Shown: positions 35,147 through 49,505 of the stretch, piece after piece | Layout: each line of letters opens with the position of its first letter | How positions within the stretch are numbered: the first letter of the stretch is position 1 | Made by a program: the position numbers and the translations under genes | Notes under the pieces: model-generated | What the model saw: only the letters and a program-made list of their open reading frames with translations | Told to the model about the DNA's origin: nothing | Databases searched by the model: none | Virus record (IMG/VR): IMGVR_UViG_3300032322_002195 | Span: 44,838 to 108,837 of that record | Direction: 5' to 3' (one strand) | DNA length: 64,000 bases | Origin: a virus

Positions 35147-35315
35147 CAAAAAAAAATTTTTTCAAAAAAGGGTATCCTTATTCTTAACTTAAAATTTCCC
35201 CAAAAAATTTTTTTCAAAAAAGGGGTGACCATATTTTTAAGTCAAAATTTCCAGAAAAAAATTTTTTTTAAAAAAGGGGTATCCTTATTCTTAACTTAAA
35301 ATTTCCAGAAAAATT
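35147..35315. repeat. three tandem repeats of about 62 bp
   Basis: Units contain AAAATTTCC(C/A), an A/T block, AAAAAAGGGG and ATCCTTATTCTTAACTT. Copies one and three are nearly the same; the middle copy differs (GGTGACCATATTTTTAAGTC). The A/T blocks are self-complementary. It fills the gene-free gap between the PcfJ-like and DUF932 genes. Confidence 0.75.
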
Positions 35316-35330
35316 TTAAACGGATAATCG

Positions 35331-35418
35331 TACCCCCTTTATAGGGGGGTCAAAAAACCCTACGGGAGGGGGGTAACGGGGGAGGGGGTACGGAGGGGGT
35401 CCTATACGGGGGGAGGGG
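35331..35418 (+). other. G-run-rich region, possible G-quadruplex
   Basis: CCCCC TTTATA GGGGG hairpin at about 35334-35349, followed at 35364-35418 by eight runs of three to six G on the plus strand, broken by one to six bases. This is extreme in a genome of about 30 percent GC. The rest of the gap to 35588 shows nothing further that I can name. Confidence 0.7.
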
Positions 35419-35587
35419 TTAGATTGTTATGATGGTGCAAAGGTAGTAAAAATATCCATATAAACAAACTTTTTTGAAAATATTTTTATCTTTGTTAAAC
35501 AATGTATTTTAAAGCGTTTTAAGCGTGTTTCATATTGTTTTGGGGTATTGATATAGGTGAGGGGTTAAAAGTTGCTATAAAGCAAAA

Positions 35588-38022: not shown

Positions 38023-38054
38023 TTTGGTAGATTGAAAAAAAGTTTGTATATTTG
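38023..38054 (+). promoter_or_regulatory. host-type promoter of the tRNA-like RNA transcript
   Basis: TTTGGTAG at 38023-38030 and TATATTTG at 38047-38054, rightward. The predicted start falls at or just before the first paired base of the RNA cluster (38060). Confidence 0.75.
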
Positions 38055-38059
38055 CAGTG

Positions 38060-38126
38060 TTGTAAATGGTTCACAAGGTGTCTGAAAGTGGACTAACCAA
38101 ATACGCAGGTCAATCGACATTTACAA
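38060..38126 (+). ncRNA. folded RNA element A, closed by a 9-bp stem
   Basis: TTGTAAATG and CATTTACAA (38060-38068, 38118-38126) close a 67-nt element. Inside are GGTT...AACC and GTC...GAC pairings. It is tRNA-sized with an acceptor-like stem but has no recognisable T-arm loop. It shares spaced motifs (AAGT, GACTA, TACGCA) with element E. Confidence 0.5.
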
Positions 38127-38129
38127 CAT

Positions 38130-38229
38130 AGTCAGAGAAGCATGATTAGGTTATATGCCCTACTTGGGTTGAAGTAGTTACTTCGTAATTCCGCATGGGT
38201 GATAGCAGGTTCGAATCCTGTCCTGACTA
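38130..38229 (+). tRNA. tRNA-like RNA B, irregular anticodon region
   Basis: Acceptor AGTCAG with CTGACT, D-arm GCAT...ATGC with an AGG loop, and a canonical T-arm GCAGG-TTCGAAT-CCTGT. The middle stem CTACT/AGTAG has an 8-base loop TGGGTTGA without the usual U33, followed by 27 bases before the T-arm including TTAC-TTC-GTAA. At 100 nt it is long, and I cannot assign an anticodon. Confidence 0.5.
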
Positions 38230-38234
38230 CTAAT

Positions 38235-38310
38235 TAGACCAACCTCCTTCCCATTAGAACAGGACGCTCAGGATTTAAGTAGGGTTTGATTCCCCTTAAT
38301 TAATTGGTCA
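38235..38310 (+). tRNA. tRNA-like RNA C, degenerate
   Basis: GACCAA (38237-38242) pairs with TTGGTC (38304-38309). A T-arm-like GGG-TTTGATT-CCC lies at 38282-38294. D-arm and anticodon arm are not clear, and the T-arm does not stack directly on the outer stem. Could be a decayed tRNA or part of a larger fold. Confidence 0.35.
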
Positions 38311-38315
38311 ATTTT

Positions 38316-38394
38316 GGTTAAATGGCGTAGCTGGATAGCGCAAGGATAGTGGCAGACCCCACCCTTTACACAGGTTCGAATCCTGTTTTAACCA
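38316..38394 (+). tRNA. tRNA-like RNA D, extended anticodon arm
   Basis: Perfect 7-bp acceptor GGTTAAA/TTTAACC, D-arm GCGT...GCGC with loop AGCTGGATA, perfect T-arm ACAGG-TTCGAAT-CCTGT, discriminator A. The anticodon arm is abnormal: AAGG-ATA-GTGG-CAGACC-CCAC-CCTT, an 8-bp bulged stem with a 6-base loop and no U33. Probably processed as a tRNA but perhaps unable to decode. Confidence 0.55.
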
Positions 38395-38417
38395 CGAATG
38401 CAGTTCAAATCTGCTCG

Positions 38418-38495
38418 TTGACTGAGGTTATGGTAAGTAGACTATTGAGGTACGCACTCAACTTAGAAATAAGGTAGAATGAAGTGAACAGTCAA
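38418..38495 (+). ncRNA. folded RNA element E, tRNA-like with ACG loop
   Basis: TTGACTG/CAGTCAA close the element; TTGAG-GTACGCA-CTCAA is a perfect 5-bp, 7-base-loop arm (would read ACG). CTTA-GAAA-TAAG is an extra hairpin. No T-arm is visible. Just before it, GCAG-TTCAAAT-CTGC at 38400-38414 is a free-standing T-arm-like hairpin. Confidence 0.45.
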
Positions 38496-38497
38496 AA

Positions 38498-38526
38498 AAA
38501 AGGGGTTGCTAATGCACCCCTTTTTT
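38498..38526 (+). terminator. terminator of the tRNA-like transcript
   Basis: AAAGGGG...TGC-TAAT-GCA-CCCC (one bulged T) followed by six T. It begins 3 bases after element E, defining a transcript of about 465 nt. Confidence 0.85.
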
Positions 38527-47835: not shown

Positions 47836-48093
47836 ATGTCAAAACAAACTCAACGTAGCATTAGCGAAATCGCTCTAGAAATTCGCAAAGATTGGAAAGC
47901 AACTTCCAAAAATGGTATCTATTTTGGTGCTAAACCTTATTTAGAAGCTATGGAAATGCTTACCGATAAAACAAGCCGTTATGGTTATGATTCAGCTTCT
48001 AGCATTATAAACTACTTCTTAGCTAATGCTTCAACTTATCGTGGAACCAAAGCAAAAGAATTAAAAGCTGAATTGAAAGCGATAATCAAATAA
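47836..48093 (+). CDS. conserved small protein of Bacteroidota mobile elements
   Basis: 85 aa. RSISEIALEIRKDWKATSKN, GAKPYLEAMEMLTDKTSRYG and SASSIINYFLANASTYRGTK match a small family I know from Bacteroidota phages and plasmids (ISEIAxEIxKDW, PYLxAM, SAxxIxxYFLxNA). Function unknown. Own rightward promoter and terminator make it a single-gene unit. Confidence 0.75.
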   Translation: MSKQTQRSISEIALEIRKDWKATSKNGIYFGAKPYLEAMEMLTDKTSRYGYDSASSIINYFLANASTYRGTKAKELKAELKAIIK

Positions 48094-48542: not shown

Positions 48543-48559
48543 ACCATATAAAATAGCCA

Positions 48560-49006
48560 AACCCCTGTCCACATTTCGGGCTCAGGGGTTGACTTTTTCT
48601 AATAATTGGCCGCATATAAGCTGCCTTCGGTTGTTAATGCGGGCATAGCCGCCCGCTGGCTGAATTAAGAGGTGAGAGCCCACCCCAATCAATCGGCTCA
48701 AACTGATTGAGATGTCACCACTTTTTGGCTCAATGGGATGCCTTCCCACCGACTTACGTCCCTTGGCAGGGAACCTTTTTCGGATGTTTGGGTACACAGT
48801 GCCAATCTGCCTTTCGGGAGGGGCTGATGTCCCATTTTTAATATAAGGTTTGACCGACCTTAGTTAATCCTTTTCAGGGGATACGGATGGTGCATTAGCA
48901 TACATATCACTATGATGTTTTTTGTAATCCTAGGACAGCTACCACAGTCTACATCCTAGGTACTCAACGCTTTTATAACTAATGTGTAAGTTAAGCGTAA
49001 ACTTAC
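48560..49006 (-). ncRNA. large structured RNA of about 450 nt, unknown family
   Basis: A host-type promoter (49013-49045) starts the leftward RNA. Clear stems, 5' to 3': GTAAGTT/AACTTAC; CCTAGGA/TCCTAGG; AAGGT/ACCTT; TCCCT-GCCA-AGGGA; TGGGA/TCCCA; GGTGA/TCACC enclosing TCAATC/GATTGA, whose loop GAGCC can pair with GGCTC downstream (pseudoknot); GCGGGC/GCCCGC; and a last AACCCCTG/CAGGGGTT followed by a U-rich stretch. Much higher GC than its surroundings. It is not RNase P, tmRNA, SRP RNA or a group I/II intron core as far as I can see. A 71-codon frame inside looks accidental. Confidence 0.7.
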
Positions 49007-49012
49007 AAGACA

Positions 49013-49045
49013 AAGGTAAGAAATAAATTTGATATTACCAAATTT
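49013..49045 (-). promoter_or_regulatory. host-type promoter of the large structured RNA
   Basis: Minus strand TTTGGTAA with TTTGG near 49039-49043, and TTACCTTTG at 49013-49021. Confidence 0.75.
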
Positions 49046-49061
49046 ATTTTCAATTTTTTTG

Positions 49062-49185
49062 CGGTCATAATTGGACTCGAACCAATAAGATGATGCTTAT
49101 ATGTCGTTATTCCTAGCAAATTGGTATTTATCATTTCCAAGTTGCCGCTATCTGATTAATCTCTAGCTTTACGACTAATATGACC
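49062..49185 (-). tRNA. tRNA-like RNA F with enlarged middle
   Basis: Acceptor GGTCATA/TATGACC (7 bp) and T-arm ATTGG-TTCGAGT-CCAAT are canonical. Between them lie about 90 bases instead of about 45, including GTCG/CGAC, TTGG/CCAA and ATAAG-CATCAT-CTTAT. No anticodon arm with U33 can be assigned. Own promoter at 49212-49243 (TACCTTTG, TTTGG). Confidence 0.5.
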
Positions 49186-49211
49186 AAGTATTAATTTCAA
49201 TGAACGTGAGA

Positions 49212-49418: not shown

Positions 49419-49431
49419 TTTTTTGTTTTTG

Positions 49432-49505
49432 TGCGCCCTGCTGGGCTCGAACCAGCGACCTATTGATTATGAGTCAATTGCTCTGACCAACTGAGCTAAG
49501 GGCGC
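49432..49505 (-). tRNA. tRNA with CAT anticodon (Met, or Ile if lysidine-modified)
   Basis: Full cloverleaf: acceptor GCGCCCT/AGGGCGC, D-arm GCTC-AGTTGGTCA-GAGC, anticodon arm ATTGA-CTCATAA-TCAAT, variable AGGTC, T-arm GCTGG-TTCGAGC-CCAGC, discriminator A. CCA is not encoded. This is the only wholly regular tRNA I see here. Confidence 0.93.

What the first reader, a model, noticed from the sequence alone, without database searches (positions are those of the whole stretch)
48560..49006. Large, GC-rich, multi-hairpin RNA of about 450 nt next to tRNA genes
A promoter, at least nine strong stems, a likely pseudoknot and a final terminator-like hairpin define one leftward RNA without a credible gene. 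It lies beside a tRNA and a tRNA-like gene. Big ornate phage RNAs such as GOLLD and ROOL are known to sit near tRNAs in phage genomes, but I cannot match this sequence to either and it is shorter than both. It may be a new class.
Basis: partly seen in the sequence, partly recalled or inferred. Interest (0 to 1): 0.85.

Follow-up and report, generated by a model that had tools for sequence, protein, structure and literature searches.

The report
New structured phage RNA beside tRNAs
A virus of Bacteroidota-type bacteria carries a roughly 460-letter gene that makes no protein but folds into an elaborate RNA found so far in only four related viruses; it resembles known giant phage RNAs in setting and style but is a different, undescribed family, so its job is still open.

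Summary
Window 48550-49006 (-) is a stand-alone, non-coding RNA gene: a Bacteroidota-type promoter, about 457 nt holding the highest G+C in the window, a conserved pseudoknotted core and an intrinsic terminator. It matches no Rfam family (E<=10). A 54-nt core led to homologues in four other virus records (three distinct sequences) out of about 150 related records searched. All sit in the same genomic slot, convergent with an 85-aa ORF, each with its own promoter and terminator. Helices covary: Pb UGGGA/UCCCA becomes UGAGC/GCUCA, and Pc and the terminator are rebuilt between lineages. No reading frame is conserved. A covariance model built without the fourth sequence found it at E=1e-10; that copy lies directly downstream of tRNA-Leu and tRNA-Met and carries a weak tRNA-like domain. 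Three relatives sharing the neighbouring holin-like gene carry genuine GOLLD instead. GOLLD and the homologues (not the window copy) begin with promoter plus a boxA-like element, a layout seen only at structured RNAs here. So this is a new, rare family of ornate phage RNA, like GOLLD/ROOL in setting but not a member of GOLLD and without a ROOL match. Its molecular function is inferred, not shown.

The parts
49011..49042 (-). Bacteroidota-type promoter, TTTGG (49042-49038) and TACCTTTG (49018-49011)
   Evidence: sequence; the same layout precedes all homologues and the tRNA-like gene
48550..49006 (-). the structured non-coding RNA, about 457 nt (ends inferred from promoter and terminator)
48722..48775 (-). 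conserved 54-nt core: GGUUCCCUGCCAAGGGACGUAAGUCGGUGGGAAGGCAUCCCAUUGAGCCAAAAA
   Evidence: nhmmer; models R1/R2, window 84.7 bits, L195 71.1 bits
48759..48772 (-). hairpin Pa (UCCCU-GCCA-AGGGA)
   Evidence: pairs in all four distinct sequences, with C-G to U-A change in L002
48732..48750 (-). hairpin Pb (GGUGGGA-AGGCA-UCCCAUU)
   Evidence: becomes GGUGAGC/GCUCAUU in L193, two double compensatory changes; one mismatch in L004
48671..48719 (-). Pc: outer helix GGUGA/UCACC and inner helix CAUCUCAAUC/GAUUGGGGUG
   Evidence: own-strand pairing 1.00 against 0.65 and 0.70 for strands swapped between homologues
48676..48700 (-). pseudoknot: Pc loop UGAGCC (48700-48695) with GGCUC (48680-48676)
   Evidence: UGAGC/GCUC in all four distinct sequences; strict layout in 0 of 2500 shuffles
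48550..48594 (-). terminator hairpin AACCCCUG/CAGGGGUU with AGUC/GGCU extension and 3' UUUU
   Evidence: a different stem at the same place in L002/L004 and L193
48526..48543 (.). palindrome TGTACACAAACGTGTACA between RNA and holin-like ORF (associated, role unknown)
   Evidence: shared by all homologous loci and L005, repeated elsewhere in the genome
48204..48506 (+). 100-aa holin-like membrane ORF, convergent neighbour (holin-like from sequence only, no family match)
   Evidence: present next to the RNA in L002-L004, not found in the L193 slot
47836..48093 (+). 85-aa ORF of unknown function, conserved convergent neighbour
   Evidence: present in all homologous loci, 55-82% identity, and in L005
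49061..49186 (-). neighbouring tRNA-like gene with own promoter and boxA-like GUUCAUUGAAA leader
   Evidence: separate transcript, not part of the RNA
49431..49505 (-). tRNA-Met (CAT)

Best explanation
It is a free-standing, trans-acting structured RNA of a T4-like (gp17-type terminase) phage of Bacteroidota. Shown from sequence: its own host-type promoter, its own terminator, no conserved coding, a conserved 3' half (hairpins Pa and Pb, then the pseudoknotted Pc domain) and a fast-changing 5' half. In L002/L004 and L193, but not in the window copy, the transcript begins with a boxA-like element (GUUC[AU]UU[GA]A). Inferred: host RNA polymerase makes it, with NusB/S10-type antitermination helping polymerase through the structured, untranslated transcript; it folds into a compact multidomain particle and works as RNA during infection. 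The role most likely resembles that of GOLLD and ROOL, i.e. an abundant RNA scaffold or assembly tied to the phage's tRNA/translation programme, because GOLLD itself sits in sister phages with the same leader layout and the two were never found in one record here. The oligomeric or cage state is an extrapolation.
For: Four distinct sequences (window; L002=L003; L004; L193) with a conserved core: nhmmer 6.7e-16 (L004 query) and 3.4e-10 (window query); model R1, built without L193, finds it at E=1.2e-10. Compensatory changes in Pa, Pb, Pc and terminator; own against swapped strands 1.00 v 0.65 and 1.00 v 0.70 for Pc, 0.94 v 0.56 for the terminator. Pseudoknot topology in all four; strict version 0/2500 shuffles for each of three. 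Same slot, convergent with the 85-aa ORF. Own promoter and terminator in each. No protein frame. BoxA-like motif within 60 nt of a promoter at five transcripts, all structured RNA (tRNA-like, sRNA, tRNA-Leu, two of this family), among about 280 promoter-like sites; the same motif type at the start of the three GOLLD genes. GOLLD over 300 bits in G073, G093, G100, which lack the R1 core; records with the core lack GOLLD. L193 holds a tRNA-like domain, 20.4 bits, inside its linker; GOLLD linkers sometimes hold tRNAs, GOLLD is most conserved in its 3' region and env-38 lies downstream of tRNA-Met (PMC12286853).
Against: Only four sequences, two of them close, so covariation is strong case by case but not statistically deep. 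The window copy has only z=-2.3 and no boxA in its leader. The RNA is half the length of GOLLD in the sister phages (about 900 nt) and shares no collinear sequence with it. Two homologues have no tRNA nearby. Mutual exclusion rests on few, partly incomplete records. No expression data.
Confidence: 0.6

Rival explanations
1. A tRNA-linked accessory RNA: it modifies, protects or mimics tRNAs (for example a decoy for host tRNA-cutting defences), as part of a set of odd tRNA-like RNAs these phages encode.
For: tRNA-Met and tRNA-like neighbours in the window; L193 lies directly after tRNA-Leu and tRNA-Met and contains a tRNA-like domain; L005 has tRNAs in the same slot; other tRNA-like genes with enlarged anticodon regions occur in window and relatives.
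Against: L002/L004 have no tRNA nearby and no tRNA-like domain was detected inside them; the conserved core is not tRNA-like.
Confidence: 0.17
2. An extremely diverged or truncated GOLLD (for instance its 5' cap domain only).
For: Sister phages carry GOLLD with a similar leader; a Pa-like hairpin UCCCU-ACCA-AGGGACUUA lies in the GOLLD 5' domain of G073 (R2 12.4 bits, E=0.023).
Against: GOLLD model (416 positions of the 3' region) finds nothing in any of the records with the core; direct comparison with three complete GOLLDs gives only scattered, non-collinear words; the Pa-like match has no Pb or Pc after it.
Confidence: 0.07
3. A base-pairing sRNA, or a transcript that interferes with the end of the convergent holin-like operon, acting by antisense or terminator interference.
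For: It is convergent with the 85-aa and holin-like ORFs in L002-L004 and the window.
Against: It ends at its own terminator before the ORF; the holin-like ORF was not found at that place in L193; conservation lies in structured core and pseudoknot rather than in a single-stranded seed.
Confidence: 0.08
4. A catalytic RNA (new ribozyme or group I-like remnant).
For: Pseudoknot, invariant CGUAAG segment; an HNH-type ORF follows it in L193.
Against: No match to group I, group II, RNase P or small self-cleaving ribozyme families; each copy is bounded by its own promoter and terminator rather than lying within a gene.
Confidence: 0.05
5. Chance structure or an unrecognised protein gene.
For: Window z-score is only -2.3; a 71-aa ORF exists.
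Against: Homologues, compensatory changes, synteny, indels out of frame, no conserved frame.
Confidence: 0.03

Closest known systems
GOLLD RNA (RF02032)
   Same: Phage-encoded, own promoter, boxA-like leader (in the other lineages here and in three GOLLDs of sister phages), often next to tRNA-Met, more conserved 3' than 5' half, hairpin loop pseudoknotted to a nearby strand, tRNA-like insert in the linker of one member.
   Different: No model match, no collinear sequence, about 460 nt against about 900 nt, different core; homo-oligomer not tested.
ROOL RNA (RF03087)
   Same: Phage-encoded, often near tRNA islands, pseudoknotted, no protein coding.
   Different: No model match (search without positive control), shorter than the 574-position model.
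T4 stable RNAs C and D (species 1 and 2), from memory
   Same: Stable RNAs of unknown function encoded with tRNAs in T4-type phages.
   Different: Much smaller; no sequence comparison made.
rRNA-type boxA antitermination leaders (PMC10250234 for E. coli)
   Same: GUUCUUUAAAA / GUUCAUUGA element soon after the start of untranslated structured transcripts.
   Different: Only sequence resemblance (boxA consensus from memory); the element is missing in the window copy, and host NusB/S10 binding is inferred.

Membership tests
GOLLD (RF02032) | score above the Rfam gathering cut-off (150 bits) | tested here: not met
   no match at E<=10 in G000, G002, G102, G103, G011, while sister records G073, G093, G100 score 305-322 bits in the same search
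GOLLD (RF02032) | length of about 800-900 nt with 5' and 3' domains | tested here: not met
   about 457-470 nt in all four sequences; sister GOLLDs about 900 nt
GOLLD (RF02032) | phage-encoded, often near tRNAs | tested here: met
   window and L193 near tRNAs; not L002/L004
GOLLD (RF02032) | homo-oligomeric RNA cage | not testable with these tools
   needs native gel, mass photometry or cryo-EM
ROOL (RF03087) | match to the Rfam model | tested here: inconclusive
   no match in 36 records, but no positive control rang; no ROOL hit in cmscan either
ROOL (RF03087) | homo-octameric nanocage | not testable with these tools
   needs structure work
tmRNA | tRNA-like domain plus resume ORF | tested here: not met
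   ARAGORN and Rfam give no tmRNA in the window
group I / group II intron, RNase P | match to the family model | tested here: not met
   no hit at E<=10, although Intron_gpI is detected in a relative
protein-coding gene | conserved reading frame | tested here: not met

The most novel reading that the evidence does not exclude
A new class of ornate phage RNA, half the size of GOLLD, that replaces GOLLD in a lineage of Bacteroidota T4-like phages and forms an RNA-only particle linked to phage tRNAs, sometimes with a tRNA-like domain carried in its linker.
Probability: 0.25. Interest if true: 0.85.

Novelty: new variant of a known kind. Interest (0 to 1): 0.62.

Why it matters
Large ornate phage RNAs (GOLLD, ROOL) are conspicuous, abundant and of unknown function. 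A smaller, apparently unrelated RNA in the same niche, in phages whose sisters carry GOLLD, gives a natural comparison. If two unrelated RNAs fill one role, what they share (promoter plus boxA-like leader, tRNA neighbourhood, tRNA-like linker, pseudoknotted 3' half) points to the role. At about 460 nt it is also easier to make and solve. The boxA-like leader offers a simple sequence signature for finding further untranslated RNA genes in Bacteroidota phages.

Tried and rejected
Blastn against phage isolates: only promoter matches or short chance words. Exact 31-mer core in IMG/VR and GTDB genomes: none. Looser core patterns gave only the known homologues plus chance matches, which lay in coding-like DNA or lacked the core structure on inspection. 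Core models R1/R2 against about 150 related virus records: one new true homologue. Homology to GOLLD by sequence and by R2: rejected. Coding: rejected. A loose version of the pseudoknot motif occurs in 7-16% of shuffles, so only the strict version, set after seeing the structures, and its recurrence at one place are used as evidence. MAFFT misaligns Pc, so Pc pairing was counted on hand-defined strands. Metagenome collection not scanned (cap of zero). No description of this RNA in the open-access papers searched.

Full report
What was checked. The stretch 48560-49006 on the - strand is a transcription unit of its own. Reading leftward it starts at a promoter of the Bacteroidota type (TTTGG, about 20 nt, TACCTTTG at 49042-49011) and ends in a hairpin AACCCCUG...CAGGGGUU extended by AGUC/GGCU and followed by UUUU (48594-48550). 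Its G+C, 0.46 in a genome of 0.31, is the peak of the 64-kb window. The fold is better than shuffles, but only moderately (z -2.34, 4 of 100). Rfam finds nothing in it at E<=10. tRNA-Met lies at 49431-49505(-), and a tRNA-like gene with its own promoter at about 49061-49186(-).

The phage. The window is part of a 108,837-base virus record. Its terminase is of the T4 gp17 type, with the best isolate match, about 31% identity, in Flavobacterium phage immuto. PHROGs also finds the portal. It has no close relative among sequenced isolates. Bacteroidota as host is inferred from the promoter type and these matches.

Homologues. Relatives of the 85-aa neighbour ORF led to L002/L003 (identical, two contigs) and L004, where the RNA lies in the same slot. 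The shared 54-nt core, GGUUCYCUGMCAAGRGRCGUAAGUCGGUGGSRAGGCAUCCCAUUGAGCCAAAAA, was made into a covariance model (R1). Against 100 related virus records it found one more true member, L193 (G011), E=1.2e-10. With R2 the window scores 84.7 bits, L002 82.1, L004 79.0 and the new one 71.1; the next match is 15.1. A further 50 records gave none. Further pattern scans of IMG/VR and two of GTDB genomes gave no other. So the family is rare: five known records, four distinct sequences. In all, the 85-aa ORF follows in convergent orientation; in L193 the holin-like ORF was not found there and an HNH-type ORF sits just after the terminator. In a more distant relative, L005, tRNAs occupy the slot.

Structure. 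Pa (UCCCU/AGGGA) varies by U-A and G-U replacements. Pb changes from GGUGGGA/UCCCAUU to GGUGAGC/GCUCAUU in L193, two double compensatory changes, with one mismatch in L004. Pc, just after the core, has an outer helix (GGUGA/UCACC; GAGUG/CACUC; GGGUG/CACCC; AGGUG/CACCU) and an inner helix that differs between window, L002/L004 and L193. Strands pair fully within a sequence but at 0.65 and 0.70 when swapped between sequences; for the terminator 0.94 against 0.56. The Pc loop holds UGAGC, which pairs with GCUC just 3' of the inner helix, in all four. A loose definition of this pseudoknot layout occurs in 7-16% of shuffled sequences; the strict one, chosen after the fact, in 0 of 2500 for each of three sequences. 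The 5' halves are alike only between L002 and L004. In L193 about 140 nt are inserted between core and Pc; they include a tRNA-like domain (20.4 bits; E 1.2 over 4227 families, so much stronger if only tRNA is asked). Reading frames are not conserved beyond the core, where DNA identity gives matches in several frames on both strands.

Leader. A motif GTTC[AT]TT[GA]A lies within 60 nt downstream of a promoter at five transcripts in the window genome, G002 and L195, out of about 280 promoter-like sites. All five are structured RNAs: two members of this family, a tRNA-like gene, an sRNA and a tRNA-Leu operon. It resembles the boxA of rRNA leaders. Similar elements begin the three GOLLD genes of relatives (GTTCTTTGAAA twice, GTTCTTAGAAA once). 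The window copy of our RNA lacks it. That the element recruits antitermination factors is inference.

Relation to GOLLD and ROOL. Three relatives sharing the holin-like ORF carry genuine GOLLD (305-322 bits). None of them has our core, and none of the records with our core has GOLLD; the sample is small and the records may be incomplete. GOLLD there is about 900 nt and shows no collinear similarity to our RNA. ROOL was not found in any record, but that search had no positive control. The published features of GOLLD (conserved 3' region, variable 5' region, proximity to tRNA-Met, tRNAs in the linker, loop pseudoknots; PMC12286853) are paralleled here. Membership is not supported; the analogy is.

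Conclusion. Shown: a real, non-coding, structured, transcription-unit-like RNA gene with homologues and compensatory changes, not in Rfam. Inferred: expression, antitermination, trans action as RNA, and a GOLLD-like role.

Noticed in passing
L200:2775-3365 (G073): A phage tmRNA match (RF00023, 49.7 bits) overlapping a group I intron match (RF00028, 94.7 bits) on the same strand, in a relative that also carries GOLLD: possibly a phage tmRNA interrupted by a group I intron.
   Followed up: no
window 38040-38500 (+): A second cluster of structured RNA: a promoter, a tRNA-like gene with an enlarged anticodon region (about 38129-38232) and a tRNA with unclear anticodon (38316-38395).
   Followed up: partly
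window 49061-49186 (-); L137:481-600; L005 slot: tRNA-like genes with T-arm and acceptor stem but D or anticodon arm replaced or enlarged by tens of nucleotides; recurrent in these phages.
   Followed up: partly
L137:738-1085: Another G+C-rich (48%) 348-nt structured RNA inside a tRNA array, ending in a terminator, without Rfam match at E<=1; not related to the window RNA by sequence.
   Followed up: no
window 38534, 48526, 62960, 63158: Palindrome of the type TGTACACATTTGTGTACA repeated in intergenic places and conserved in relatives; perhaps a protein-binding site.
   Followed up: no
window 35200-35440; L188:18670-18760: Very G-rich or C-rich low-complexity intergenic stretch, present at an apparently equivalent place in the relative.
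   Followed up: no
L193:306-412; window 48797-48812: A separate pseudoknot-capable RNA of about 105 nt between tRNA-Met and the RNA's promoter in L193 shares GGCAGAUYGGCACUGU with the 5' part of the window RNA.
   Followed up: partly
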